Part shown: one piece after another, positions 3,957 through 61,452 of the stretch | Numbering within the stretch: the first letter of the stretch is position 1 | Layout: every line of letters begins with the position of its first letter | Assembly: GCA_019096065.1 (NCBI GenBank) | Contig: JAGUCH010000003.1 | Coordinates: forward strand, 8,556,001 to 8,620,000 | Direction of reading: 5' to 3' | Length of the DNA stretch: 64,000 bases | Source: Paracyclopina nana | Lineage: Eukaryota; Arthropoda; Copepoda; Cyclopoida; Cyclopettidae | Notes under the pieces: generated by a model | The model's database searches: none | What the model saw: the letters and a program-made list of their open reading frames with translations, nothing else | Told to the model about the DNA's origin: nothing | Position numbers and translations under genes: made by a program

Positions 3957-6900
3957 GGGGACCTACAGAAGCGCCCCTACTTTTTGTCTTAGCCAGGGCA
4001 TGCTCATTAAGATCAGCTCTCTCCTCAGCATCTCCCAGTTGTGCTTGTACGTGACGGAATTTTGCCAAGTTGAGAGCAGCGATTTCCTCAGCCTCTTCTA
4101 TTTGCTTTTTGTAGGACTTGACCTTGGACTGCAGTTGATCAACTAATGCTTGCATTCGCTCATGGTTCTTCCGGTCCTCATCAGAAGCATATGTCAGCTC
4201 CTTGATGCGTCTCTCGGATTTTCTCAAGTTTTTCTGAGCATCAGCCAACCGCCTACTTTCAGCATCAACCTCAGAAGCCAACTCCCTGATCCTTGTTTCC
4301 ATCTTGTTCATGGCTTTCTTGCCACCCTTGAGAGCATTCGTTTCAGCCTCATCCAGCCTTTGCTGCATATCCTTGAGCTGGCACTCGAGAAGTTTCCTGT
4401 CTCGCTCGAATGCTTGAGCTAGTTCCTGTTCACCTCTCAACTCGTCTGCCAGACGAGCTGCATCAATCATTGCCTTCTTGGATCGCTCCTCTGACAAGTG
4501 AGCTTCATTAACCATCTCATCAACATCACCCTAGAATATTCAGTAGCAATCTTTAAAATAAATATCTAACCTTAAGAGTGAAGCTGCTTACATGCAGGGT
4601 TTGCATCTCAGATTCCAACTTTCTTTTAGCTCCAGCAATGGCTTGATTATGGCAAGTCTGCTCAGACAGCTGCTCATTGGTATCAGACAGCTCCTGCTCA
4701 GTCATTCTGCGAGCTCTATCAGACTGCTCAAGCAATGTTCTGGCCTCCTCAAGTGCATTTTGATTGGTATTAGCTCTCCTCTCAGCTGCCAAAAGCTCAT
4801 CTCTAATGACCTCTTTTGCTCTTTGTTCATCCTCAAGCTTTGTTTGAGCCTCCCTGATTGACTGATGGTATTTCTTAATTGTCTTATGAGTTTCTTGATT
4901 TGCAGCATTGGCATGCTCTAGGGCCACTTCAAGTTCAGTGACATCAGCTTCAAGTTTCTTCTTCATCCTCATTGCTTCTGCCTTGCCCTTACTCTCCATC
5001 TCTAATGCACTTTGCATACCATCAATGGCTTTTTGGAAGTTCTTCCTAGTGCTCAAAAACTCCTCCTCCTTTTCGGCAATCCTTCTTTCTATCTCTTGCC
5101 TGACTTGTGTCAGTTCGAGCTGAGCTCGTAGAACCTTGTTCTCTTCTTGTTCAAGGGCACCTTCCGCTTCCTCCAAAGCCGCTTGAAGTTCCATCTTTTC
5201 AGCTTCAAGCCTTTTCCTAATCTTATCAATCTCATGAATAGATCTTCCACCCTCACTGATTTGATCCATTATGTCCTTGATTTCATTGCTCAAAATCTTG
5301 TTCTCTTTTCTAACCTCATCTAATTGATGAACTGCCTCTTCATATGCAGCCTTTACTCTAAAGAGTTCAGATGAAGCATTCCTGCATTCCTTTTGGGCAA
5401 CATCAAGATCCATGGCCATAGAATCAACCTTCATCTTCCATTCCCCAACAATTTTGTCAAATTGCTTAGCTTTCTTCTCCATTGAGCTGTTGAGTATATG
5501 GGCTTGATCAGCTTGGGCAGCCATTGCATCAATTTCAGATTGAAGTTTCATCTTAGCAATCTCAAGCTGATTGAGCTTTGCATTCAATTGCTCAATTGTT
5601 GATTGAGCTTCTGCAAGCCTTGCCTGAAGTTTCATCTTGGCCAACTCTAGCTCTTCAGCTTTTGCAAGACCTTCATTCTCAAATTTGGATCTCCACAAAT
5701 CAGCCTCTTGATTGGCTTTGGCCAATTGTCTAAGAATGTCATCCTTGGCAGTGGCCTCCTCTTCAAGCTGTTCCCTCATTCCATCTAACTCATGCTCAAG
5801 ATTTTTGAATTTGCTCAGCAGAGATTGTCTTTCTTTGGCTTCATCATCAGCAACCTTCCTGGTTTCATCAAGCTGTGATTGCATTTGGCATTTCAGCTTC
5901 ATAAGCATGTTAGCATTGTTCTCAAGTTCCTGCAGCTGCCTGAGCAAGTCAGCATTTTCAGCAGCAAATTTTCTCTTGCTGTTCTCAAAATCTCCAAGTG
6001 TCAGGTTGGCTTCCTCAACCTTCTTGTTTACATCATTGAGTTGTTGAAGAAGATTTTTGTTGGACTTCTCAGCTGATGCTCTAGATCTTGAAATCTCATC
6101 TGTAGCTGCTCTTACATCTTGAGTCTCATGCATTATGGCTGCCTTGTCCTTTTCAATTTTTGCTTTCATCTTTGACAGCTGATCAATTTGCTCTGACATT
6201 TCAGCCACTGCATCTTGATGCTTCCTCTTAAGATTGCCAAGAGTTGCCTCTTGCTGAATTTTAGCCTCTTCCAAATCTTTTCTTAGTTTGCCTACTTCTG
6301 CTTCTCTCTTTTTGTTCAATTCAACTTGTGCATGCGTTGCTCCACCAGCCTCTCCCAATCGCTCACCGAGACTCTCCAATTGTTTGGCTAAGTCAGACCT
6401 TTGTCTCTCAGCCTTTGCTCTGGCTTGTCTCTCAGCCTCTAATTCTTCTTCCATTTCCTCCACCCTGCCTTGAGTTTCCTTAATGCTTTTTTGAAGTTTG
6501 GCAACAATGGATTGTTCATCATCTAATTTGCTGGCATTGGCAGAATAATCCTTTTCCTTTCTTGCAATAGCACTTTCCAACTCTTTTTTTGCTCTTTCTA
6601 GCTCTGAAACAGTTTCCTGAGTAACCTTCAGCTCCCCTTCAACTTTTCTTCTTTGCTTCTCAATATCAGCTCTAGCTCTTTTTTCTCTACCTAATGAGTC
6701 ATGAAGCTCATCCAAGGTTTGTTCTAGCTTGGATTTTATCTTACTAAGATGATTCATTTTATCTTCAGCAACTTGAAGATCTTCACTTGCCTTTGCATTA
6801 TTTTCATTCATGTACTTCTTTTCCTTGTTCAGCTTGTTGATTACCTCATCTTGATTGGCAATTTCATCAGAAAGTGTTCTGATTGTATGGTCTCTATTGG

Positions 6901-9900
6901 TTTTTTCTTGTTCAAGCTTTTGAATAGCAAGTTCCAAGTCTTCAATGTCCTTCTTGATCACAAGATTATCACCCTCCAACAATTTCTTGTCCAAGGTTGC
7001 CTGCTGCCTAGCTGCTTCCATTTGAGTGAGCCTGACACCAGCCTCTTGAAGCTGAACTTCTAAATCTGCCTTGAGTGCAGATGCCTTTGCTTGCCTTTCA
7101 GTGTACTCACTCATATTTCCTTGTTCAGACTCGAGTTGAGCCATCAGTTGTTTCTTCTCAGCAACAATTGCTTCATTTTCTTCCTCAAGTCTAGCTTTTG
7201 TGTTAAGCTGATCTTGGTAAGCTCCATATGCTTTCATTGCCTTTTCCTCTAGAATCCTGAGCTCCTCTTCAATGTTAACTTGGCCAATCATAGGCTTTGT
7301 TTTTTGTATGATGATGAACCATCCCCAGTTTCTTAATTGCTGATACTTCCTAAAGTTTCTCTGAATGACTTTCATGAGTTCTCTCTGATCATGTTTGATG
7401 CTATACACCTTCCTTTTAAGGTAGCCATAGCATTCGCCTTGAAGCCATCTAACAAGCTTCAAGACAATGTTGTCCCTTGCCTCTTCTAGAGCAGCCAGGG
7501 CTCCAGCTCTGAAAAAAACTTTGGTGTGGCCTAGCCTGTACTTATCCCTTGAAAATTCAATCTTATCAAGAAGGGCATAAACACCTGTTTTGTTATCATT
7601 TGAGTTGGCAATTTCTTGGGCACCCAAAATTTGATAGCGACTCTTGAAATCTGGATACATCATTCTGTTGGGAAATCCTCTCATGCAAATTCTAATTCCT
7701 TCCAACACACCATTGCAAGTCAACTGGTGCATGATGAGCTCAGGCTCTACAGCCCCAGGCTGCTTGTGGGTGTTGGGTACAATGCAGCGAATGAAGTGAG
7801 GCTCAGTGCTATGGAGGGTATGCATAAGTTCAGATAGCTGAACCAAGTAAACCGATGAGACAGTTTTGGCACCCCCTCCCTTCTTCTTCTTCTTGTCCTT
7901 ACCGTCATCAGGTGGTGCTGACTGTCCAGGGTGGTTGTCCCACAAGAAAACCAATAGTGCATTTGAAGACCGTTTCAAAACATCAACCACAGTGTCATTG
8001 ACAGGATCTTTGTTCTTTTCCAGCCAACCAGTCACATTATAGGACACAATGCCAGCATAATGAATGATGGCAAAGTGGGCATTTTTGTCAGTCTTAGACT
8101 GAGGCTTTGCAAATGGAGGAGACTTTCCTAGGTGTTGAGCCTTCAACTTTTCTTCAAAGGATTTATCAGTAGCCTTGGGAAACAGAGACTCCTCTTCCAG
8201 GATAGCCCAGATTCCCATAGGCTTTTCAAACATTATGATACAGGCTGCTAAATCCATACCAAAGTCAACCATTGCCCAATCAATTCCTTCCGAGATGTAT
8301 TCTTCTTGTTCTACCACAAACATGTGATGGTTAAAGAATTGTTGAAGTTTCTCATTAACAAAGTTAATGGAAATTTGCTCAAAACCATTATACTCAAAAA
8401 TTTCAAAGCCAGCAATATCAAGGACAGCCGTGAAGTTAGACTTTTTCATTGATTTGTCAATGAGAGTTTCATTACATTTTATAATTAGCCATTTGAAAAG
8501 CCTGTCAAAGCAAGATCTAGCGATGCCACCGACTCCATTAGTGGCTTGCTCACATGTTTGACCCTTGGTCACCCACTCTGTTCCAACTTTTATCTTAGGC
8601 TTACAAAAGGCTTTCATCATCTCATCAGCATTCACTCCAAACAGCTCACCAATTTTGTTTGGGTAAGACATGTCATCAACTTCAGCCTGGTCATCACGGC
8701 CTTTTTGCTTAAACTTAACTTCGCCAAAAGACATCACTGCAGCAGTGATTTTGTAGCAATCCCATTTTTCTTGCTGAGAGAATCCAATAATGTCGAAAGC
8801 TGAATCTGTATACTCAAGCTCCTCATTGTCATCAATTGATGCCACAGTGACCTTACCCTGTGAAACATATGAATAGTCATAGATATCATCTGAGAGATGA
8901 CACTTTGCTTTCAAATCAGCTACAAAGGGCTGAAGAAGCTGATAGAAAATGTGATAGGATCTTTCAACTTCTTGCTGCTGAGTAATCCTTGATTTTTCCA
9001 ACAAGTAAGACTCAATATCGCAACCGCACAGCTTTCCAGAAGTGGTGAAATGGATGCGGATGAATTTGCCAAAGCGGGATGAATTGTCATTTCTGGAAGT
9101 TTTTGCATTTCCATATGACTCAAGAATTGGATTAGTTGCCACTATTTGGTCTTCAAGAGACACCTTCTTGGCTGCTTTCTTTCCACTTGATGCCACCATT
9201 GCCAAGTATGAAATTACTTTTTTGGTATTTTCAGTTTTCCCAGCCCCAGATTCGCCAGTAATTAGCATTGATTGATCTTTAGAGTTGGTGAGCATATTCC
9301 TGTAAGCAGTCTCAGTGATTGCCCACAAATGAGGGGGTACCTCATTCCTCCTTTTCCCAAGATACATTTTGACCACAGTGGGTGTATAGATTGGAAACCT
9401 CTTATAGGGGTTGACAACTATACAGAACAAGCCAGAGTAGGTGTAAATGAGCTTAGCTTGATAGCGGACCTTCAAGTTGTAGAAGACAGAGGCGTCGTTT
9501 AAGAAGGTCAAATTTGCCATGTCTTCGCACTTTTCAAACTTAGGTGGGTTCACTTGGCCAATTTCAGATGACTTGAAAGTTTTTTTCTGAAACAGATCAG
9601 CCAAACAAGAGCATATTAAAGTGAAGCACAATAGGAATCTAGCAAAATACTCATTTGGATTAATATAAATTTAGCTATAAATGCACAGTTTTTGTGGGGG
9701 GACAGTTTTTCTCATGACTTTTTTCTCTAGATGGGAGTTTGTCCAGCCTAATTTGCACAGTAGGCATTAGAGGACAATTTGTAATAATTTGACCATGTTT
9801 TGAGCCTTATTATGCCAGTAAATCAAACTTTTCTGCAAGTTACCAAAGTTCCAGCTGGCTTTTGAGCAAGTCAGTATATCTGTCAAAGGTGTTCCTAGAA

Positions 9901-14792: not shown

Positions 14793-17700
14793 TCACTGAA
14801 ACGTTTGATCCAGGACGGCAGCCACTTCTTTGTGATGCTCTGATCCCACCCCAACAGCAGGCTGGCATAGTGGTCCTCGTCCAGCATAGGCCAGATTACG
14901 GATTCCAATCAAGTTAGCAAATCGGGGCTTGATGAAACTCCAGGCTCCAGCATTTTGATGCTCTTCCTGACTCCATACATATTCTGGAAGAAAAAATAGG
15001 CGAGAAAAGTCAATAGCTGTCAATGTCAGAGTGTGCTCTAAAGTTGACAGGCTGTAGCAAAAATTAATTTGCTACTTGCAAAATGTTTGCTCAGAGCAAA
15101 CGTAACTCATGCAAGACAGTTTGGACTTACTTTTTGCAAACTGGTAACGTGACACTTCATCTTGTATCTCCTTTGTTGGGAAAGGACAAAGTTGCTCAAG
15201 TCTGATGAAGGCCGTGTCCTTTATGCCAAGGTCCTCGGCATGTTTGACCAGGGCATAGTAATGTTTGCCTGACACAAAAACGACCCTGCGAACATCTTTG
15301 GGATTAGCTCTTTTGTCAGGGAGCACAGGATTGAAATGAGTGCCAGGTCCCATTTCAGTCAGATCTGAGGACGCAGCGGACAACCGAAGCAAAATCTTGG
15401 GGGCAACAACCACGAGGGGCTTTCTAAAATTTCGCAGCATCTGAAAATACAACTCGTTACTGACAAAGTCATGCACACATGAACAATTGGCTCACCTGAC
15501 GCCTCAAAAGGTGGAAGTATTGAGCCGAGGTCGAGGGGTTCACAATATGCCAGTTGACATCGTCTCCATCAACGTTGTCCTCGCTCGAGTCAGACATCTG
15601 CAGAAACCTTTCCATTCTGCATGAAGAATGCTCAGGACCAGCCCCATCCATGCCATGGGGCAGTAGCATGGTGAGCCCTGACTGGAGCCCCCATTTGGAC
15701 TCTCCAGATCCAACGTACGTGTCCAAGATGATTTGAGCCCCGTTGAAGAAGTCACCGAATTGCGCTTCCCATATCACCAAATTATTGGGATGGCCTATAG
15801 AAAGGCCGTACTCGTAGGCCAACACAGCCTCTTCACTCAAGGGAGAGTTGGCCATTTCCAAATGACCTTGGTTGTCGATCCCAAGATCATTCAGAGGAAT
15901 GTAAACTTCGTTGGACTCCTGGTCCACCAGCATCGCGTGCCGATGGCTGAAAGTTGCTCTTCCCACATCTTGGCCACTTATGCGAACATTGAATCCTTGA
16001 TAGAGCAACGAGCCGACCGCCAAGGCCTCTGCCAAGCCCCAATCTATGTTGGACCCGGACTGGAGTTTTTTCAAGCGGGCCTCCACGTGATGTTTCTTCA
16101 GGTGATTATGGATGTTGAAGTCATCGGGATGCAGCACTGACCTTGATCCCACGTACTTGAGCACTTCGTACGACAGCCCTAAAACATGAAATATTTGCAG
16201 GCATTTGGATATAGTTCACTACTGTAATTATGTACCAGTGTCCCATTGAGTGATTGATTCTCCGGGTTGAATCATGGTTTGCCAATCGCCCTTGAGGTTG
16301 GATTGCTCAGGCTTGTAAGTTTCAATTTGTTTGAAGTGGTCGTTGAGCATTTCCGAATGTTTGGCAACAATGTTTGCAACATCTTGGCTCTGCATGATTT
16401 GCGATTTTATTAGCTGCTCGGAGTAGGCATCAGGCACGGATCCACGAGCGTGAACTTTGCTGTATAAAAGTGGATTAGTGAAGGTCGGATCGTCCAATTC
16501 GTTGTGTCCCCAGCGACGGAAGCAGTGGAGCTCAACAAAAACCTCCTTGCGGAACTTTCGCTGGTACTCAAGGGCGATTTTTGTTCCAATCATGACAGCC
16601 TCAGGATCATCTCCGTTGACGTGGAATATGGGAGCATTGATGAATTTGGCCAGATCCGAGGAGTATCTCGATGATTTGCCCCGGTCGTTGGGAGTGGTAA
16701 ATCCAATCTGGTTATTGACTACGAGGTGCAATGTTCCACCCACGTTGTAATGGGGCAAATATGAGAGCAGCAAGCATTCTTGATTGATTCCCTGGCCGCT
16801 GAAAGCCGCATCTCCATGAATGAGCACGCAGAGTACATCGTCTCCAGTGATGCTACTAGCACCATAATCGTGGCTGTAATCTCCTGAATTGGAGGTCATT
16901 TGCTTTGCCCTAGCTTTTCCCATGGCAACCGGATTCACAGCCTCCAAATGGGATGGATTGGGCAACATTGTCACGTGACAGCCATTTAGATCTAAGGAGC
17001 TTGCTGAAAAAAATTTGGTCATTCTTGTGAGGCCAAAATAAAACTTCTCCTCAACAACTACTTGTCTTACTTAAGTGAGATAGAACGTCGCCGGCTCCTT
17101 TTTGCTCCGAAGGGAATTCGCGAAGTCCTTTCATTTTTCGAAACATGGCCACGGGAGGAAACTGCATGAGGCCAGTTAACAAGTTGAGCCGACCACGGTG
17201 TGGCATTCCTACAACCACATCCTTGAGTCCGTCTAATTGAAAATCGAAGAAGTAATTAATTCTGTAAAAATAGATTCGATGCCCATTTTGTACATTTTGA
17301 GTTGGCGTTGTCAAAAAGTTCCACGAAAAATCCCATCATGGCTTCGGCACCTTCTCCGCCGTAGCGTTTCACGTTGGAGAATTTCGTTGCTAGAAAGTTA
17401 TCGAAATTTTGCGATTTGAGCATCTCCTCAGCAAGTCGAATTTTTTCGCAAGTCGTTAAGACTGCTTCACGGTTTGACAGATAGTCCTCGTATTTTTGAC
17501 ACAGCCACTCATGTTCAGCCTCGTCCTGTAATTATCATTGAAGCAGGATGACATATGCAAATTTCAGAGATCTTCGAACTGATAGTATGTAAATGTTGCG
17601 GTCACCACTCTTTACAATTACAGGGACCCCCTGCTGGAGCGTGAAGAACCCACCAATTAAGTGGCCCGGCACACTTGTCCCCGGCCATAAAATCACCTTT

Positions 17701-18768: not shown

Positions 18769-19633
18769 GATGATTCCTGGTGAACTGGCGGCGAACTTCC
18801 AATGTCAGCTCCTCACTGTCACATCGATAAACTAGCAAAATTCGATGAGATTTTCAATTCTCCACAAAAATTACGATCTATCAAAAAAAGTGCAACTAAC
18901 AGATCGAAAACGAACCTATCCAATAAAAAAATGACTTCAATATTCCAAATCCTTCGATGAATCTCACTAACAAAAAGTAAAGTTTTAGCAGATGTAAATA
19001 TGGTTCCATTTGATTCATTTATTTGATAATAATGAAAAAAATATCACATTAAATTTTATTAACTACCGCAAATATTGGCTTATTCTGAATGCCTCGTTAC
19101 AGCGCAGAAGGAAAAGTTCGAAAACAAACTAAGAAACCAGTTTTCACCGCCATCATGTATCAATTAGCTCACATATCGAAATCATTTAATTGATTGCAGA
19201 TGCAAATCCAGAATAGTGACTCAAAAAATTCGGATAAATTGTTCCCCTTCGATGAGCCTTTCGACATCTGCTTCGAAGCATTTTTTCGCCTATTTTCTTT
19301 CAACTCTGACATTGTTGCAATTTGAATTTGCCGCTCTTTCTACTTGTTGGCTTGAAGCTGAAATCGAGCCGACTCGTGTTTCCGCCTTTCCAGTTCCACG
19401 CCGAGCCGGGTTCGTGTCTTCTTTTGCCAAATCTTCGAATTTCTTAACTTCTTCGGCTTCCTTCGTGGTAAGATCTGCCGTTAATTATCGTCGTAGCCTT
19501 CCTTGATTATCCGTTATTTTGACGCTCGCTCTTCTCGCGAGTTTTTTATTAAGCACCTCGATAATTTCGCAGTTTTTTTTACTTTGTTTACGTTCTGCTT
19601 TTATTTCTTTTGTTAGGCAGTTTCAAAAGCACG
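18769..19633. promoter_or_regulatory. Bidirectional promoter region DHTKD1 / EEF1D
   Basis: Head-to-head starts of DHTKD1 (-) and EEF1D (+). A likely EEF1D 5' UTR donor, TTCCTTCGTG/GTAAGATC, lies near 19468. An acceptor, TTTTGTTAG, lies near 19617, just before the ATG at 19634. The upstream part of the UTR exon is pyrimidine-rich, as expected for a translation-factor mRNA. No ORF. Confidence 0.5.
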
Positions 19634-22605
19634 ATGTCAGTTCAAGCTTTAGCTCAAGAGAATTTTTGGGCCAACAAGGCCGAATGCGATGACGCCGAAA
19701 AAGCCTATTACATGAGGCTCTCTGGAGCTAAGGTACAGATCTTGCACCCCTTAGTCAATTTTGACACCCCCACCCCCCTCTCTAAACTTAGTTGATGTCC
19801 GAAGATTTGCTGTGAAATTATCCTTGGTTCTCTATCTTACTCTCTCTGCTCTAAATTCTCCTTGATGGGAATTTGTTAACACTTCTCACTCCGTCATATT
19901 TTTGAGTTTTTTGCGTTGTTCGTCGTTCTTGGTAGCCCTTGGTTATTATTTTTGTTATATTTTTAATCTAACTTTCAATTTTTTGTCGGGACTGCCCCTT
20001 ATTAGTCATGCACCGTCATCACATTTTTGTTGTTGAACAACTCACCGCTAAAAGGGAGCTTTCCATGCCAGCTTTGCTTTCTAACATACAGTCAGCTGAT
20101 CGACGAGTATTGACTGAACATCTTCAGGAGCCAAGCCCTCCAATAAAGGTCCCTAGTCATCTTTCAAAATGGTTCAAGATGGAGCAAAGAAGAAGAAAAA
20201 CAACAAAAAGAAGAACGGCAAGAAGGGCCCTCAGCAACAGGGTGACTCTCCGCCTGAAGTCCTTGCCACACCCGACCCCCAGCAGCAGCAGCCAAAGGAA
20301 GCCCCCCAGCCGGTCGTAGTTTCGGCCAGCAAACCTTCTAATTCTGGCAATCAAGGACCGCCCAAGAAGGCTGCTATTAACGGAGTGAAACCCTCCGCTA
20401 CTAACAATAACTCCCCACCTGACTCTGAGGCTGTTTTGAAAAACTTGGCCTCTGAGGCAGATCGTTTGTTAACTTACAACTGGGCTGCCATCCAGGATGC
20501 TGAGACCAAGTATCAACTGTATCTCGCGTCCCAAAAAAAGGCGCCTGGAAAGGTAGCCCATACCATTTTTCGTATACCCTTTTGTAACATTATAAGTACT
20601 CATGCCATTGTGCTCTGTATTAGAAAGCCGCCCCCAAAGCTTCCGAGGAAGATTTTGACCTCTTCGCTGCCTCAGATGAGGAAAAGCCTGCCCCTAAGGC
20701 CAAAGCTGAAAAGAAGAAGCCCCAACAACAGCAAGACAAGTCTCAGGTAGATTGTAGATGATGTAGCTTGCAGAAATTTTCTTTTGGTTGCCCCCTCACA
20801 CCGGACTCTCTTTTTTCGTTTGAAAAAGCACGATAAACCTCTCTCTCTCTCGTTACACTAGTCAAGCAAAAAGCGAACAACGTCCGAGTCTGACAAGAAA
20901 AAGCAAAGGACTACTTCAGAGTGCAATAAGCGCTCCAAGACAAAGTCTGAATCCAAGCCTGATGGTGGCTTGTACTTGAACGTGAAAAACGACCAGAAAA
21001 CCTTGGTCTTGCTCAAGCCTGATGCCATTCATCGCAACATGATGGGCGACGTTGTGAGGAAATTTGAGAACAGAGGTTTCAAATTGGCTGCTATGAAGTT
21101 TGTCAACGCGTCTGAAGAGCTCCTCAAGAAGCACTATGAGGACTTGAACAAAAAGCCCTTCTTTCCTGAGCTCGTCAGGTATCCGATAACTTCAATGCTG
21201 CCATCGGAATCCGCATTTTGAATTCACTCAAGGTACATGAGATCTGGTCCCATATTGGCCATGGTTTGGACGGGTCTCAATATCATTCCTATGGTGCGTG
21301 CGATGGTTGGAGCCACTCGCCCTATGGATGCAGCTCCAGGATCTGTTAGAGGCGATCTTTGCGTCGACGTTGGACGCAACTTGATTCACGCCTCTGATTC
21401 TGCGGAGTCGGCACAAAAAGAGGTTGCCATGTGGTTTCCGGATGAGCAGATTGTGCAGTGGAGACCTTGCACTCTTGAATGGACCTACGAGGACGAAGTT
21501 GACGAAGAAACCCTCAAGAAACCAGCGATTGTAAATGGCGCTAGCTTGACTTTTTCCCGACCACCTTTTGGTTATGCTTAGATAATTTAGTTTGCACGGA
21601 TATGAACCATGACTTTAGTCCGGTGCCACCCACCCCTTCGTTCCCCTAATATTTGTGCCGCTTTTTTATAATAACGTATCAAAGATAATTAACTTGTTTT
21701 CTTGGTGTAGGGCTCATCCCAAAGCTCATTGGCTGCCGAGATTGCCAAGGCGCGACAACACATTAAAAACTCACTTGAGTGTGTGAGTACTTTAGAGATT
21801 ATAACAACATCTTTTCCCTTTTGCTGATTTTCCAATAACTTCTTTCCTCCTCCTGCATCGGTAAAGAAGATTTGTCATCAGCTTTATTTTTTGCTTCAAG
21901 GTTGACGGACTTGCAGCAATGGCCAGCGGAGCAAACCCTGATATTGTTAAGAAGCTCAAGGACCTCGAGCTTGAAAACTCCAACCTCAAGAAAGGTAAAG
22001 TGATCTAATGGATTATTATTGTAAGCGATTTTCATTGGCGTGAATGGATTTGCAGTCACACAAGACTTGAAAGCTCTCGTGCTCAAGCTTGAGGGTAGGA
22101 TCAATGCTCTTGAGAAAGGAGGTGCTGCTCCCGCCAAAGAAGCCAAGAAAGAAGAGGAAGAGGATGAGGACGTTGACCTGTTTGGCAGCGGAAGCGACAG
22201 TGAGGATGATGCCGAGAAGGCCAGAGTCAGGGACGAAAGGCTGGCTGCCTACCATGCCAAGAAGGCCAAGAAGCCTGCTCTGATTGCCAAGACCTCGGTT
22301 GTCCTCGACATCAAGCCTTGGGATGACGAAACTGATCTTGATGCCATGCTCAAGCAAGTCAAGACCATCCAAAAGGAGGGCCTACTTTGGGGAGCTTGTA
22401 AGTGGCTTATTTTTAGTTCTAGGCCAATTGCCAACTATTTGTTATTGTAGCTAAATTGGTCCCCGTTGGTTATGGCATCAACAAATTGAGGGTCATGTGC
22501 GTCGTCGAGGACGAGAAGGTGTCAATTGACGAGTTGTGCGAGCAGATTGCTGAATTCGAGGATTTCGTCCAATCTGTCGACATCGATTCCATGTCGAAGA
22601 TTTAA
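19634..22605 (+). CDS. EEF1D: Elongation factor 1-delta (eEF1B-delta, GDP/GTP exchange factor)
   Basis: Exchanges GDP for GTP on eEF1A after each aminoacyl-tRNA delivery, as part of the eEF1B complex. Exons by eye: 19634-19732, 21711-21782, 21901-21994, 22056-22397, 22451-22605, consistent phases, 253 residues. Residues 1-33 are the delta-type N-terminus ([18 protein letters not shown]) that binds eEF1B-gamma. Then come [12 protein letters not shown], a leucine-zipper-like helix, the acidic stretch [14 protein letters not shown], and the catalytic domain ([52 protein letters not shown]). The last exons are typical in every respect. Intron 1 is 1978 bp and contains a complete second ORF on the same strand (next entry). 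Poly(A) signal at 22708. Confidence 0.95.
20169..21581 (+). CDS. eEF1B-like N-terminus fused to nucleoside diphosphate kinase, inside EEF1D intron 1
   Basis: Four exons by eye: 20169-20552, 20624-20746, 20862-21178, 21233-21581, phases 0/0/2, giving 390 residues with its own ATG (CAAAATGG) and TAG. Residues 1-40 are Lys/Gln-rich. Residues about 85-128 contain [18 protein letters not shown], which resembles the eEF1D N-terminus. Residues about 130-170 have [13 protein letters not shown], like the eEF1B acidic linker. Residues about 170-205 are a Ser/Lys-rich hinge. Residues about 212-355 are a complete NDP kinase: LLKPDA (Lys221), HYEDL, the Arg in [22 protein letters not shown] with the phospho-acceptor His (about 327), and the Trp-Tyr-Glu end. 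All key NDPK residues I can check are present, so it is probably active. NDPK makes GTP from GDP with ATP; the exchange domain of eEF1B is replaced by it. It may be a nested gene or an alternative EEF1D isoform. Confidence 0.85.
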
Positions 22606-47019: not shown

Positions 47020-48645
47020 TTACACAATATCTTCTGGTTTTGTCGGCCTGATTGAGTCGCCATCCCAAACAGTGACAGTGGGGATGGCACGATTGGTGCA
47101 AGACCTCGATCTCGTCGTTTTTATCGGCTTCATGCTCGCGCAAAAGGAACGCCTTTTCTGGTGGAACTGCCGATGCATGCAATTGCAGGATTTTCGTCGG
47201 TGGTTCGCAGGAGAGTGGTGGAGGCCGTTGGTGGGTAGCGGAGGCCAGGCCTGGATGGTGGCTGGTGGGGTGACAGGTGGTGGGAGCATGAAACTGGATC
47301 TGGACCTGCGCGTTTGCGCGGATGCAAATTGGCTCACTTGCCACTGAGTCATGAGGCTGCGATCGTTCCTCGTCGTGTTGAGGCCGTTCTCAATGTCCTT
47401 TGAGGTCGGCCTTGAAAGGCCTCTGCACAGCCTTTTCAGGAGCCTCTGCATCACTGGCTTCAAGTCGAGATTGTGGTAGGCAAACATCCAAGGATTGACA
47501 GCGCTACAAATGAGCAGCGGAGCGTTGAGCGCTACGTACACGAGGTTCTTTCGATTTAGAGGCCACTCCGACGCGTCCTCCACTGCAATCGAGCTCAATT
47601 GGCTGGGGATGCGAGTGGCAAAAACCATGACCACCACCAAGGCCAGGGAGGTGCCATACCGGCTGCTACCGCTCGAGCTCGATGAGCCTCCACCGGCCTT
47701 CAAAATGACCTCATCTTTCAATATCACTGCAGACGTTGGCAAGCCCACTGCTCGCGGAATGGCCAATTGGTTCGAAGACGAGGCCAATTTGTGCGGATCC
47801 AGCACATGGTGGTTGGCGGCCTCGGAGGTCGTGGTGAGCTTGTAGCTGGCCGAGGCCATCCTGTCCCTCACCGAGCCCTCGCGCTTGATGGCCTTTGCGT
47901 GCCTGCTCGCCACCGAGTAGACGTACATGTGGCAAAAGGAGACGGCGAGGCCGCAGGGGAGGGTGAAGAAGACCAAGAGGCTGATTTGCATGCTCCGCTC
48001 TGGCGTGGGCCCGAGCGGGACGAGCATGAGGGACTCCTCGGCCCTGATGAGGTCGGTGAACACGTGAAAGACGGTGAGTGGCAAGGCGATCCCAATTAGG
48101 CTGGCGATCACGCACGAGGCTCCGATGAACGCGTTGACCGAGGTGAACGTCACGATCTCACTGTAGTGCAGCGGCCTCGCGAGGCTCAGGGCCTTGTCGC
48201 CAGCATTGGCCACCATGAGGAGCAGGCTGACGGCCTGCATGGTCGACATGGACATGGCCAGGAAGTAGGAGAGGCTCACCGGGGGCTCGAGCATCTGCGT
48301 CGTTTTGGCCAGCCCGAACAGCGAAGATATGAAGAGGACCATGCCAAGCATGCAGTCAGTGATGGCCAAGGCCAGCAGGATCTGGTTGGAGGCCGTGCGC
48401 ACCCTCGAGAATCGGCAGAAGGGCACGATGACCAAGATGTTGGAGGCCACCGTGATTGGCGCGAGGCCAAGGCCAAGGAGGCTGAGGATGATGATCAGAG
48501 CTGTCTCGTCATTGTCGTGCAGGATTTGGTCAGAGTTGGGCGCAGTCGGGATTATGGTCACGTTATCTTCATCAACTTGAGCGAGTGCTAATGTGGCGTT
48601 GCTCATATCTATCTTGCTCACGTAGTAGGCGGGATCGATGCTCAT
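47020..48645 (-). CDS. Class A G-protein-coupled receptor, orphan, intronless
   Basis: Single exon, 541 residues. The extracellular N-terminus has N-glycosylation sites (SNAT, DNVT). Seven hydrophobic segments: TM1 about 48-73 (with ASNILVIVPF), TM2 about 85-110 (LALAITDCMLG), TM3 about 122-148, TM4 about 168-190, TM5 about 222-247, TM6 about 338-360 and TM7 about 378-402 (ICSAVNPWMFAYH). TM7 keeps the NPxxF/Y motif and TM2 the conserved Asp. After TM3 the usual DRY is replaced by GDKALSLARPLHY, where the typical 'ARPLHY' survives. TM6 lacks the CWxP motif. The third inner loop is about 90 residues with a Ser run, and the C-terminal tail is long, Ser/Arg/Pro-rich. The closest feel is aminergic/adenosine-like, but no ligand can be assigned. 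Base composition is more GC-rich than the neighbours. Confidence 0.85.
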   Translation of the reverse strand: MSIDPAYYVSKIDMSNATLALAQVDEDNVTIIPTAPNSDQILHDNDETALIIILSLLGLGLAPITVASNILVIVPFCRFSRVRTASNQILLALAITDCMLGMVLFISSLFGLAKTTQMLEPPVSLSYFLAMSMSTMQAVSLLLMVANAGDKALSLARPLHYSEIVTFTSVNAFIGASCVIASLIGIALPLTVFHVFTDLIRAEESLMLVPLGPTPERSMQISLLVFFTLPCGLAVSFCHMYVYSVASRHAKAIKREGSVRDRMASASYKLTTTSEAANHHVLDPHKLASSSNQLAIPRAVGLPTSAVILKDEVILKAGGGSSSSSGSSRYGTSLALVVVMVFATRIPSQLSSIAVEDASEWPLNRKNLVYVALNAPLLICSAVNPWMFAYHNLDLKPVMQRLLKRLCRGLSRPTSKDIENGLNTTRNDRSLMTQWQVSQFASAQTRRSRSSFMLPPPVTPPATIQAWPPLPTNGLHHSPANHRRKSCNCMHRQFHQKRRSFCASMKPIKTTRSRSCTNRAIPTVTVWDGDSIRPTKPEDIV

Positions 48646-49572
48646 GCTTGATTCATGATTTCGGCAATGAAAGGCGCCCTTGTTGCAATTAATGTTTACA
48701 GCAGCAAGTTCTGCGCATCACTTGTTGGGGATGCCACGGCGGACTAAGAGCGAGCAGCCTCCGAGGCCGCTTCATGCGAGGCCGTGGACGTGGATGGCGC
48801 TCGTGAAATCACGAGATTTTGAATGTTTATGCTACATGACAAAAAAGGCCTAGCTGCATGCGCCATGACTTCATGAAGCGGCAAAAATAATAGCAGGGCC
48901 TTTCACTGGCCTGGCTTCTTATGAAAAGCTTTTCCATTTTTGCACAAGGTCTATTTTTTTACTATTGGACGAAGCTTGGTTGTTGATTGCTTTCGAAAGA
49001 TAATAGTAAAGTTTTACTATAAAAGAAAAGCATTGATTAAGTGACCAGCCATAAACAATTTATGTGAAGTAATACATGTTAGAACAGAGAAACGCGAACA
49101 GCTCGTTGATCAAATGCAGCGATTACGTAAAAGTAGTGTATGTGAGCACTTTTTCTAGAATGTAGCATCTTATTTCTGACAGGCTCCCTATATACGTCCT
49201 ACCTATGAGCATATATCGTTCTGGGTTAGGCCTACTTTTATAAAAAGCATGCACACGTAGCTTCGCAACAAAGCAAAGTCATTTGCATTCTATATAGAGG
49301 AACGTGACGAAACGCGAGCTTGTACTGTTCGTAGCCACAAATAGAATCATCAATATTTGGGGCTTTACTTGACTTCCTTTAAAGGCTGTCAAAGAAGTAC
49401 ATCATGATATGCTAGCACTACTAGTATATGGTATATATGCCATAATTAACTACTTTAGCTTGTGGATGCGAATGGAAGAAATAACGCGTAGAAGAATACA
49501 CTATATTGCGTTAACGAGGCTCCAATACTGCCCTCATTTCATACATGTAGAAGAAAGTAGCTTTATTTCCTT
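48646..49572. other. Intergenic, no gene seen
   Basis: Promoter side of the GPCR and 3' side of the ankyrin gene. No supported ORF. Confidence 0.45.
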
Positions 49573-58772: not shown

Positions 58773-60386
58773 CTAGTGTTTGCCAGCCTCAGGGGCAACC
58801 TCTCCGGTTCCAGCCATCCACGCTTCAATGTCCTCAACGGTCCTGGATGGAAAATAATTAAATGATAACCTAATAAGATAAAGCAACCTTAATTACCTGG
58901 GAACAATGGACATGAGCTCCGTTCCGGTCTCAGTGATGATGACATCCTCTTCAATGCGGACTCCGCCAAATCCACGATATTCGTTGATTCTCTCGGCCAC
59001 AAGGAAACGGCTCAGTTCCGGGTCCTTAAAAGCCCTGTTCAATAGATGATCAATGAAGTAGCAGCCTGGCTCCACAGTGAGCACCATGTTGGCCTGAAGG
59101 ACTCTGGCCATCCTCAGGTTTCTGAGGCCAGCTCCTTCACCCCTTGAAGGATGGCCCTCTAAATACCCCCCCACATCATGCACATCCATGCCCATCAAAT
59201 GTCCCAAGCCATGGGGCTGGAACACTCTCCCTGCAAGGTTGGCTGCCATCATATCATCAATGCTCCCCTGGAGGAGGCCACCCTCGAGCAAAGAGGTGAG
59301 CATCTCGCGATTGGCCAAACGGTGCATGTCAGGCCAAGCCACGCCAGGCTTTGCTGCTTTCAAGACAGCTTGAGTTGCTCTCAAGACTGCGTTGTAGATG
59401 ATCTTTTGCTTGTCGGAGAATTTTCCTGATACAGGATAGGAGCAGGTGATGTCGGAGCAGAAGCAGTAGTACTCTGCTCCCATGTCGAACAAAACCATGT
59501 CAGTTTCTTGGACGGGGTGGTCATTGGGAGCTCCAGCATGGCCGTAGTGCAGCGTGGCACCACTGTTGCCGGCCCCACAAATGCAGGTGTAGCTGACATG
59601 GCGACAGCCTCCGTGGAAGTAGGCATAGTGCAGGAACATGGACTCTGCCTGGAACTCGCGCATGCCAGCTTTCAAGTTGCGCATAACGTGCTTATGCGCG
59701 GCGGAACTGATGCGCGCGACGTAGCGCAAAACCTCCAGCTCCATTTCGGTCTTGATCACGCGCAAGTCGGACATGACATGATGCAGCATGTCTGTGTTGG
59801 TGCTGAATTCAGAGATCCCATCAAAGGCTGCTTGTCTGGTGTGCTTATCAGAGTCGGAATTGATTCCACTGAGCAGAACCAGAGTCGGACTGCTGCTGTG
59901 CAATTCCCTCAATCGGGGAGCAATTTCATCCACATAGTAGACTTGGTCCACTCTGTAGGACTCCTTCACTTCATCCAGGGTAGGAATGTATCCGGTCCAA
60001 GTAGCATTGTCCTCGGGTTGTCTTGGCATGAAGAGAATCGACCTGAAATGACAGCCGTGCTATGATTTGCTGAGATATCGTTCTTTATGCTAGCACCTTC
60101 CAGAGGCGATGTCAATGGCGCCATAGAAGTCAGGTTCGAGCACTCCGAAAGCCCAGTGGAAAAAGCTCTCCTGCCTGAAAACGGGGCCCACGTCAGAGGA
60201 GTCCCCGTCGCAACGACCCTGGTCACCGCCTCCCTGGAGGAGGACGACCCCATTTTGGGGAGCCTTGCTTTGCTTCTTCATGGCCTCGACAAGCCTTGAT
60301 CGGTTCTTGGCAAAGAGCTCCATTGGAACCTTGAGAGTTTTGTTGCCCATCCAATAAAAGCCATTTCCAGGATTGCGAGCAGCCAT
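58773..60386 (-). CDS. PEPD: Xaa-Pro dipeptidase (prolidase)
   Basis: Cytosolic Mn-dependent enzyme that splits X-Pro dipeptides, important in collagen turnover. Three exons by eye: 60386-60097, 60042-58897, 58842-58773, phases 2/2, 501 residues (human 493). The M24 metallopeptidase domain is complete: metal ligands in FDMGAEYYCFCSDITC (two Asp, 11 apart), QPHGLGHLMG (His), TVEPGCYF (Glu) and RIEEDV (Glu). N-terminal domain signatures include GFYWMGNKTLKVP, LLQGGGDQ and FGVLEPDFYGAID. Downstream, YIPTLDEVKESYRVD and HGGCRHVSYTCICG match prolidase rather than aminopeptidase P. Confidence 0.95.
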
Positions 60387-61101
60387 TCTGCAATGATGAC
60401 AGTGGAAAAAAAGGAACGATAAGGAAGATAATCAAGATAAGTAATTAGTATCTTCTGACCTTTAGCTAAAACGCAGATATGCTTATGTCAAAATCTGGCA
60501 AAAAATAAACACTCTCGATGCAGAAACTGCACCGGCTTAGCGATAATGACAAGTGAATGAGAAATTGTCAAAAAAAGAGAGGCTTGAAACTAGCCCGGTT
60601 TTTACTTCTAAATATCCTAATTGGCGACAAACTTGTTACTCAACAAATTATAATCGAATTTGCCCTTTTTAATCTTTCAAACTAGAATTTCATACGCTTA
60701 ACATAGGTTCTTCGCCATCATGAAATGAACAAATAAGACTATTAGAAAACAATTGTTTGGCTGAAATTTTCAGCTTCGGTTCAAGTAAAAGTGAGATTAC
60801 AAGAAATCGAGTCGCCAATTCTTTAGCATGCAATTCAAGATGGCAACATTTTAAAAAGCAGCTTTTTCCTTATTATACATACACCAAGTCTCATCTTACT
60901 AGAGATATTCAATGTAGGATAAGCTACCGAAAAGAATAACGTGAAAACACAAAAATGTGTCATGTAGCATGAATCATGGTCCAGATTGACCCTGCACTTG
61001 GTTCTTGCATTGGTTCAGAGAAATGTTTTAGCATCAACTTCTACGTAGCAGCAGCAACATACGGTTTTCCAAATGTGACACTCGAACAGCTGAGTCCTAA
61101 A
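60387..61101. promoter_or_regulatory. Divergent region PEPD / VAMP4
   Basis: Head-to-head upstream regions of PEPD (-) and VAMP4 (+). The VAMP4 frame is open upstream to an ATG at 60976, but those residues do not resemble VAMP4 and are probably 5' UTR. A spliced leader or UTR acceptor, CTCGAACAG, lies at about 61090. Confidence 0.4.
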
Positions 61102-61452
61102 ATGTCCAGAGACCAAGAGAGGGCTGCGCTGCTGGAAAATGACTCTGAAGACGACGATGACTTCTTTCTTCACGGACCCTCAACGTCAGCCATCAAAAGC
61201 CAAATCAGTGAAGTGACAAATATTGCGAAAAGCAACATACAGAAGCTTGCAGAACGCGAGGAACGACTTGACAGCCTCGAGGAGCGTTCCGTGAGGTTGG
61301 ACGATGCTGCTTCCAATTTTCGGGCCGGAGCTTACACACTCAAACGCAAAGCTTGGTGGCAGCAGGGAAAGTACAAGGCCGTGGCCGCCTCCAGCCTTGT
61401 CGTCCTCCTTTTTCTTCTTATTATCATTATCATGGCCAAAAAAGGCGAATAA
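61102..61452 (+). CDS. VAMP4: R-SNARE VAMP4
   Basis: Vesicle SNARE of the trans-Golgi network and endosomes. 116 residues from ATG 61102, chosen because it gives the canonical VAMP4 start; an upstream in-frame ATG at 60976 would add 42 unmatched residues. N-terminal signature LLENDSEDDDDFFLHGPS is the dileucine plus acidic cluster that sorts VAMP4 to the TGN. The SNARE motif (about 30-90) includes the zero-layer Arg in LAEREERLDSLEERS and VRLDDAASNF. After it comes juxtamembrane WW (KAWWQQGKYK), and a C-terminal anchor (SLVVLLFLLIIIIM). Single exon. Confidence 0.92.
   Translation: MSRDQERAALLENDSEDDDDFFLHGPSTSAIKSQISEVTNIAKSNIQKLAEREERLDSLEERSVRLDDAASNFRAGAYTLKRKAWWQQGKYKAVAASSLVVLLFLLIIIIMAKKGE

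What the first reader, a model, noticed from the sequence alone, without database searches (positions are those of the whole stretch)
19634..22605. eEF1B-delta gene harbours an eEF1B-like/NDP-kinase fusion in its first intron
A complete four-exon ORF (20169-21581) lies on the same strand inside EEF1D intron 1. It joins segments that look like the eEF1B N-terminus and acidic linker to a full NDP kinase with all key residues (Lys221, Arg, Asn, His327). It looks as if the exchange domain of an eEF1B-type protein was replaced by an enzyme that regenerates GTP. If it joins the eEF1 complex through its eEF1B-like part, it could supply GTP where eEF1A is recharged. I know of no described gene of this form.
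Basis: partly seen in the sequence, partly recalled or inferred. Interest (0 to 1): 0.87.

Follow-up and report, generated by a model that had tools for sequence, protein, structure and literature searches.

The report
GTP-making enzyme inside elongation-factor gene
In this animal, probably a copepod (a tiny crustacean), the gene for a translation factor that recharges eEF1A carries extra exons for a GTP-making enzyme, and sequences of relatives show the two joined in one protein, which may supply GTP where protein synthesis uses it.

Summary
In detail: an NDP kinase (NDPK) with intact catalytic residues and an eEF1B-like N-terminal part lies in EEF1D intron 1. The interpretation needs correcting: it is probably not a separate gene in which the enzyme replaced the exchange domain. 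In relatives the NDPK exons are spliced into EEF1D itself: N-terminus, acidic linker, NDPK, leucine zipper and GEF in one chain. The window has the sites: interchangeable exons are phase 0, and a donor at 21530|21531 joins exon 3 in frame, predicting 475- and 570-aa proteins. The 390-aa form is the read-through variant. Catalytic residues are unchanged in 81 of 81 listed fusions; fused NDPKs form one clade apart from two free NDPKs of this genome. The four organism-named fusions are copepods. A larvacean has a separate NDPK-eEF1B-alpha fusion, so the pairing probably arose twice. Best explanation: an eEF1B subunit regenerating GTP where eEF1A is recharged. Gene structure is well supported, though without transcripts of this species; function is inferred. 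Five literature searches listed no description.

The parts
19634..19732 (+). EEF1D exon 1: N-terminal helix ([33 protein letters not shown]), ends in phase 0
   Evidence: relatives P0004, P0006, P0010, P0013 have it joined to exon B
20169..20552 (+). Alternative first coding exon A: lysine-rich start, then a helix weakly like exon 1 ([17 protein letters not shown]), ends in phase 0
   Evidence: P0001, P0002, P0003, P0005; profile comparison; helix 54-92 in the model of relative P0001
20624..20746 (+). Exon B: acidic linker with DLFAASDEE motif like the eEF1B central acidic region
   Evidence: hhalign probability 95.7% against the acidic region
20862..21178 (+). Exon C: basic linker and first half of the NDP kinase (K12 and Y52 equivalents)
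21233..21530 (+). Exon D, spliced form: second half of the NDP kinase (R88, T94, R105, N115, H118, E129 equivalents); donor ATT|GTAAAT in phase 0
   Evidence: junction position compared with fused and read-through relatives
21531..21581 (+). Read-through tail of exon D with stop codon, giving the 390-aa NDPK form without exchange domain
   Evidence: the same kind of form in P0002 and P0003
21711..21782 (+). EEF1D exon 2, phase 0 at both ends; used in canonical eEF1B-delta, found by pattern in only 6 of 81 listed fusions
21901..21994 (+). EEF1D exon 3: start of the leucine zipper; follows the NDPK directly in relatives
22056..22397 (+). EEF1D exon 4: zipper, central acidic region, start of the exchange domain
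22451..22605 (+). EEF1D exon 5: rest of the EF1 guanine nucleotide exchange domain and stop

Best explanation
The locus is one EEF1D gene with a built-in NDP-kinase cassette. Two alternative coding starts (exon 1 or exon A) can be spliced to an acidic exon and two NDPK exons; these either run to a stop (kinase form) or are spliced to EEF1D exons 3-5, making an eEF1B-delta with an NDPK between its N-terminus and its leucine zipper and exchange domain. Canonical eEF1B-delta comes from exons 1-2-3-4-5. Inferred mechanism: the fusion joins the eEF1 complex through zipper and N-terminal helix, and its NDPK rephosphorylates GDP with ATP, keeping GTP high beside the domain that empties eEF1A of GDP, so driving eEF1A-GTP recharging. 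Shown: exon anatomy and frames in the window, joined chains in relatives, unchanged catalytic residues, one NDPK clade. Inferred: use of the same splices in this species, assembly into the complex, kinase activity, GTP delivery.
For: All predicted joins are in frame and the interchangeable exons are phase 0. Relatives have NDK, EF-1 acidic and EF-1 exchange domains in single chains, those with a contig listed lying mostly on 1-2 kb contigs without introns, so most likely from RNA. Read-through relative P0016 reads EEDQN-VIITKK and fused P0001 and P0004 read EEDQN-VDGIAA, which places the donor; the other seven read-through rows have V at a compatible place. K12, Y52, R88, T94, R105, N115, H118 and E129 are unchanged in 81 of 81 listed fusions. 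The 26 fused NDPKs tested, window included, form one clade, 100/99, apart from two free NDPKs of this genome. eEF1B-alpha and -gamma genes are present. The NDPK part of the model of relative P0006 matches NME1, TM 0.90-0.92 on the target, rmsd 2.2-2.3. A larvacean has an NDPK-eEF1B-alpha fusion. NDPKs feed GTP locally to dynamins (passages of PMC5473427).
Against: No transcript of this species was available. The donor ATT|GTAAAT departs from the usual consensus (recalled). No experiment seen links these proteins to kinase activity or to the eEF1 complex. This genome has free NDPKs, so local supply may not be limiting. The window's NDPK clade sits on a long branch (0.64), and the window and 8 of 81 fusions have Ala in place of Gly after the catalytic His. 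Whole-chain models have low pTM, 0.35 and 0.32. The exon A-exon 1 likeness is weak.
Confidence: 0.62

Rival explanations
1. One reading: a separate nested gene makes only the 390-aa eEF1B-like/NDPK protein, with its own promoter and stop, and never joins EEF1D exons.
For: The ORF is complete with a stop at 21581; relatives P0002 and P0003 end in this way.
Against: Fused chains with the same exons exist in close relatives, including A-type starts (P0001, P0005), and an in-frame donor at the matching place is present in the window.
Confidence: 0.1
2. The fusion exists but its NDPK serves another purpose, such as histidine phosphotransfer, scaffolding or general NTP supply, with eEF1B-delta acting only as an anchor.
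For: NME1 has reported roles in DNA repair and transcription (PMC7160314, passages); the mammalian long eEF1B-delta isoform acts as a transcription factor, not in translation (PMC4346937, abstract and first part of section 3).
Against: The catalytic residues are kept in 81 of 81 listed fusions, and the fusion partner was an exchange factor of eEF1A in two lineages.
Confidence: 0.2
3. The NDPK isoforms are minor splice noise, and canonical eEF1B-delta is the only functional product.
For: Canonical forms without NDPK are plentiful: 27 of the 195 fetched proteins show exon 1 and exon 2 with no NDPK. Amounts of the isoforms are unknown.
Against: Fusions in three named copepod genera (Eurytemora, Tigriopus, Lepeophtheirus) and unchanged catalytic residues; noise exons would be expected to decay.
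Confidence: 0.06
4. The relatives' fused chains are assembly chimeras.
Against: 81 fused records with the same domain order, a matching junction in the ones compared, three named species, and the exons lie together on one chromosome here.
Confidence: 0.02

Closest known systems
eEF1B-delta (EEF1D), animal exchange-factor subunit of the eEF1 complex
   Same: Exons 1-5 give a standard protein: N-terminal helix, leucine zipper (by eye), acidic region, exchange domain
   Different: Carries an optional NDPK insert and a second, lysine-rich alternative start
Vertebrate eEF1B-delta-L (long EEF1D isoform; PMC4346937, abstract and first part of section 3)
   Same: Also an alternative coding exon near the 5' end of EEF1D that adds a long N-terminal part
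   Different: The vertebrate part is described as a transcription-factor region, in mammals and birds; here the insert is an NDP kinase
Group I NDP kinases (NME1-4)
   Same: Full NDK profile match and the catalytic residues; 52-53% identical to fly and bovine NDPK
   Different: Embedded in a translation factor; separate clade from two free NDPKs of this genome
NDPK-dynamin GTP channelling (PMC5473427, passages)
   Same: Proposed principle: NDPK held next to a GTP-using machine
   Different: There by protein binding to a GTPase; here by covalent fusion to an exchange factor
Larvacean NDPK-eEF1B-alpha fusion (P0190, P0193; found here)
   Same: NDPK fused to an exchange factor of eEF1A
   Different: Other subunit: the part after the NDPK of P0190 matches the solved EF-1-beta chain 5dqs_D (90 aa), E 9.3e-9; NDPK at the N-terminus; NDPKs outside the copepod-type clade

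Membership tests
eEF1B-delta | EF1 guanine nucleotide exchange domain | tested here: met
   PF00736 E 2.9e-32; 2n51 Elongation factor 1-delta E 7.6e-47
eEF1B-delta | Central acidic region | tested here: met
   PF10587 E 1.7e-8
eEF1B-delta | Leucine zipper rather than GST-like domain | tested here: met
   Zipper by eye in exons 3-4 ([29 protein letters not shown]); long helix 299-337 in the model of relative P0006; no GST-like Pfam match in the window protein
eEF1B-delta | Assembly with eEF1B-gamma and alpha | not testable with these tools
   Genes for both are present; binding not tested
Active group I NDP kinase | Full NDK fold | tested here: met
   PF00334 positions 1-135 of 135, E 8.6e-51, in the window protein; model of relative P0006 aligns to NME1, TM 0.90-0.92 of target
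Active group I NDP kinase | Catalytic His and nucleotide-binding residues | tested here: met
   Present in the window and, for the residues named, in 81 of 81 listed fusions; V112 is I in 2; residue list and numbering recalled
Active group I NDP kinase | Hexamer formation and kinase activity | not testable with these tools
   P96 and S120 equivalents kept in 81 of 81; their link to assembly is recalled; no assay
Copepod-type NDPK-eEF1B-delta fusion | NDPK joined in frame to EEF1D exon 3 or 2 in mature RNA | tested here: inconclusive
   In-frame donor and acceptors present in the window; joined in relatives; no transcript of this species
Copepod-type NDPK-eEF1B-delta fusion | NDPK in the same clade as fused NDPKs of named copepods | tested here: met
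   26 rows including the window and three named copepods, one clade, 100/99
Vertebrate eEF1B-delta-L | N-terminal region homologous to the vertebrate long-form exon | not tested
   Considered only as an analogue

The most novel reading that the evidence does not exclude
A bifunctional translation factor: one polypeptide in the eEF1 complex both expels GDP from eEF1A and remakes GTP from GDP with ATP, coupling elongation directly to ATP, with splicing setting how much of the complex carries this supply; the same solution arose separately in copepods (on eEF1B-delta) and larvaceans (on eEF1B-alpha), two groups of small planktonic animals.
Probability: 0.45. Interest if true: 0.9.

Novelty: new variant of a known kind. 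Interest (0 to 1): 0.82.

Why it matters
Whether GTP for protein synthesis is supplied locally or from the bulk pool is hard to test with separate proteins. Natural fusions of a GTP-regenerating enzyme to an exchange factor of eEF1A, probably twice in evolution and with catalytic residues unchanged in 81 of 81 listed copepod-type sequences, make it directly testable: forms with and without the kinase come from one gene. It also shows a core translation gene acquiring a second enzyme through alternative splicing. The named records carry labels such as 'ndk', 'hypothetical protein' or 'uncharacterized protein'.

Tried and rejected
Independent nested gene: rejected as the main reading after fused chains were found. 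Mitochondrial (NME4-like, recalled) origin of the NDPK because of the HASDS motif: not pursued; Gly is kept in 73 of 81 fusions, so Ala looks like a change within the clade. Species identification by COX1: no match in the assembly; the order, and strictly even the class, of the animal stay inferred. A leader shared by P0062 and P0177 (PFPAACALVTDF) was suspected to be the copepod spliced leader; by eye it does not fit the CopepodSL printed in PMC4664967; unexplained. The first NDPK tree had up to two fusion rows with gaps at key positions, probably cut at a wrong start motif; it was rebuilt without the divergent own C1 NDPK and with three more fusions; both trees gave one fusion clade (100/99). 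The length trick did not shut out short proteins: rows of about 265-330 aa still appear. Literature: the listings showed no description of an NDPK-eEF1B fusion; one search found no paper. Rfam and tRNA scans of the window were empty (the tRNA scan used the bacterial setting).

Full report
What is there. The window (64 kb of a 92-Mb genome in 10 contigs) holds a five-exon EEF1D gene on the + strand: 19634-19732, 21711-21782, 21901-21994, 22056-22397, 22451-22605, reading as a 253-aa eEF1B-delta with acidic region and exchange domain. Inside intron 1, same strand, lie four further coding exons A-D (20169-20552, 20624-20746, 20862-21178, 21233-21581), reading as 390 aa with a full NDP kinase at residues 214-348.

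What it is. Searching the 390-aa protein against 5.8 billion proteins returned 46 matches at E <= 0.001, among them plain NDPKs of fungi and others. The best include chains with NDK, EF-1 acidic and EF-1 exchange domains together: P0001, P0004, P0005, P0006, P0007, P0010, P0013, and the partial P0018. Alignment with the window's predicted isoform shows how they are made. P0004, P0006, P0010 and P0013 start with EEF1D exon 1, then exon B, the NDPK, and EEF1D exons 3-5. P0001 and P0005 start with exon A and do the same. P0002 and P0003 start with exon A and stop soon after the NDPK, like the 390-aa reading. For P0001, P0002, P0003, P0005, P0006 and P0010 a contig length is listed (1.4-2.1 kb); a whole multi-exon chain without introns on such contigs is most likely RNA-derived (inference). 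P0004, P0007 and P0013 have no contig listed.

The window can do the same. Exons 1, A, B, C+D and 2 all end in phase 0. Exon D has an internal donor, ATT|GTAAAT, at 21530|21531; joining it to the exon 3 acceptor at 21901 gives open chains of 475 aa (1-B-C-D-3-4-5) and 570 aa (A-B-C-D-3-4-5). In relatives, read-through P0016 reads EEDQN-VIITKK where fused P0001 and P0004 read EEDQN-VDGIAA, which fixes the donor; the other seven read-through rows have V at a compatible place. Six relatives keep exon B with EEF1D exons but no NDPK, four going on to exon 2 (P0107, P0113, P0116, P0118) and two to exon 3 (P0110, P0115). The locus is therefore best read as one gene with a cassette. This was not tested with transcripts of this species.

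How widespread. A profile of eight fusions (seven relatives and the window's predicted isoform) matched 2178 proteins, the best 120 listed. A second profile of 17 fusions matched 719, the best 120 listed. Of the 195 proteins fetched carry both the NDPK start motif and the KPWDD exchange-domain motif, after P0178, P0190 and P0193 were set aside; partial chains lacking either motif are not counted. Four of the 81 rows bear organism names, from three species, all copepods: Eurytemora carolleeae LOC111716835 isoform X3, Tigriopus californicus TCAL_10595, and Lepeophtheirus salmonis (two rows, one named 'ndk'). That the other 77 are copepods is inferred. The listings were cut at 120 and the queries were copepod-type, so other animal groups are not excluded. 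By pattern, 57 of 81 start with exon 1, 3 with exon 1 and also keep exon 2, 4 with exon A, 1 with exon A and exon 2, and 16 have an unclear start, 2 of these with exon 2. The window's nearest rows are unnamed; named copepods are nearest outside that group, at weak support (87/79). So the animal is probably a copepod, order undetermined.

Is the kinase kept working? K12, Y52, F60, L64, R88, T94, P96, R105, N115, H118, S120 and E129 (recalled NME numbering) are unchanged in 81 of 81 and in the window; position 112 is V in 79 and I in 2; position 119 is G in 73 and A in 8, and A in the window. The model of relative P0006 has block-mean pLDDT of 77-92 over residues 131-260 of its NDPK and matches NME1 at TM 0.90-0.92 normalised by the target, rmsd 2.2-2.3; whole-chain pTM is only 0.35.

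Origin. In a tree of 36 NDPK domains the 26 fused ones, window included, form one clade (100/99) apart from the genome's free NDPKs on C3 and C4, fly and bovine NDPK, P0178 and the larvacean fusions. The earlier tree, with some faulty rows and with the C1 NDPK, gave the same. The window's clade is on a long branch (0.64). The data fit one fusion before the three named copepods split. A further free NDPK of this genome (C1) has a very long branch (1.7), so its place is unsure.

eEF1B likeness of the N-terminal part. Exon B against the eEF1B acidic region: HH probability 95.7%, score 36.9 over 15 columns, best of 100 column shuffles 15.5. Exon A against exon 1: score 17.2, E 0.0026, best of 100 shuffles 8.7, but probability only 4.7%; the window with its four nearest A-type relatives scores 9.1, the window alone 12.1, and P0062, P0089 and P0094 alone 18.7. 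Exon A is predicted as a helix (54-92 in P0001), like exon 1 (3-29 in P0006), and takes exon 1's place in splicing. A duplicated exon 1 is likely, not proven. In 17 of 81 fusions a further exon-1-like motif (such as [13 protein letters not shown]) lies 36-66 residues before the KPD motif of the NDPK; that copy is much clearer than exon A.

Independent recurrence. P0190 (404 aa) and P0193 (387 aa) have an NDPK, then an eEF1B-alpha-like part, acidic region and exchange domain. The part after the NDPK of P0190 matches the solved EF-1-beta chain 5dqs_D (90 aa; EF-1-beta is the alpha subunit) at E 9.3e-9, and both proteins align to this genome's eEF1B-alpha-like ORF from the end of that domain to the C-terminus at 48-49% identity. 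Pfam gives no GST-like match for either. P0190 begins with THPIFESDFDCLT after two residues, the exact translation of the Oikopleura dioica spliced leader printed in PMC6883708, so it most likely comes from a larvacean; P0193 is placed there by likeness. Their NDPKs lie outside the copepod-type clade. P0178, a single-member record, may be a third case or a chimera.

How it most likely works. eEF1B subunits swap GDP for GTP on eEF1A; in a review, the zipper-bearing subunit (there called eEF1B-beta) forms the trimeric core of a complex with six exchange domains (PMC12115637, passages). The fusion keeps zipper and exchange domain and adds an NDPK before the zipper. I propose that it joins the complex and turns the GDP released from eEF1A back to GTP with ATP on the spot. 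NDPKs are reported to do this for dynamins (PMC5473427, passages), and NME1 loss redistributes eEF1B-alpha in mouse liver (PMC7160314, passage). A 1995 report of NDPK on the translation apparatus is recalled only. Activity, assembly and GTP delivery are untested.

Comparison with the known. The nearest precedent in gene design is the vertebrate long EEF1D isoform, also an extra 5' coding exon, but described as a transcription-factor region in mammals and birds (PMC4346937, abstract and first part of section 3). The listings of searches of an open-access library showed no description of an NDPK-eEF1B fusion; subscription journals are mostly not covered. JGI's automatic name for P0161 already reads 'nucleoside diphosphate kinase/translation elongation factor EF-1beta', so the architecture is in databases though, as far as I could see, not described.

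Verdict.

Noticed in passing
P0190, P0193 (database proteins, not in the window): NDPK fused to eEF1B-alpha in a larvacean; P0190 carries the translated Oikopleura dioica spliced leader.
   Followed up: partly
P0178 (database protein): NDPK followed by an eEF1B-alpha-like part and exchange domain in one chain, single member; true fusion or chimera not decided.
   Followed up: no
P0062 and P0177 (database proteins): An A-type and an exon-1-type chain share the upstream leader PFPAACALVTDF, suggesting a shared 5' exon or an unknown spliced leader; by eye it is not the published CopepodSL.
   Followed up: partly
window 19467-19468: Possible donor (GTG|GTAAGATC) of a 5' non-coding exon upstream of EEF1D exon 1, with a TTTGTTAG acceptor-like site just before the exon 1 start codon.
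   Followed up: no
window 4556-9670, - strand: A 1705-aa uninterrupted reading frame with myosin head and tail, so a largely intron-free stretch of a myosin heavy chain gene.
   Followed up: no
window 15472-17070, - strand: Dehydrogenase E1 and transketolase pyrimidine-binding domains in neighbouring frames, like a 2-oxoglutarate-dehydrogenase-type gene.
   Followed up: no
window 47023-48717 (-), 58896-60059 (-), 60973-61449 (+): A rhodopsin-type receptor, an aminopeptidase-P-like M24 peptidase and a synaptobrevin.
   Followed up: no
G000, whole assembly: No COX1 match at E <= 0.001, so the mitochondrial genome seems to be missing or was not detected.
   Followed up: no
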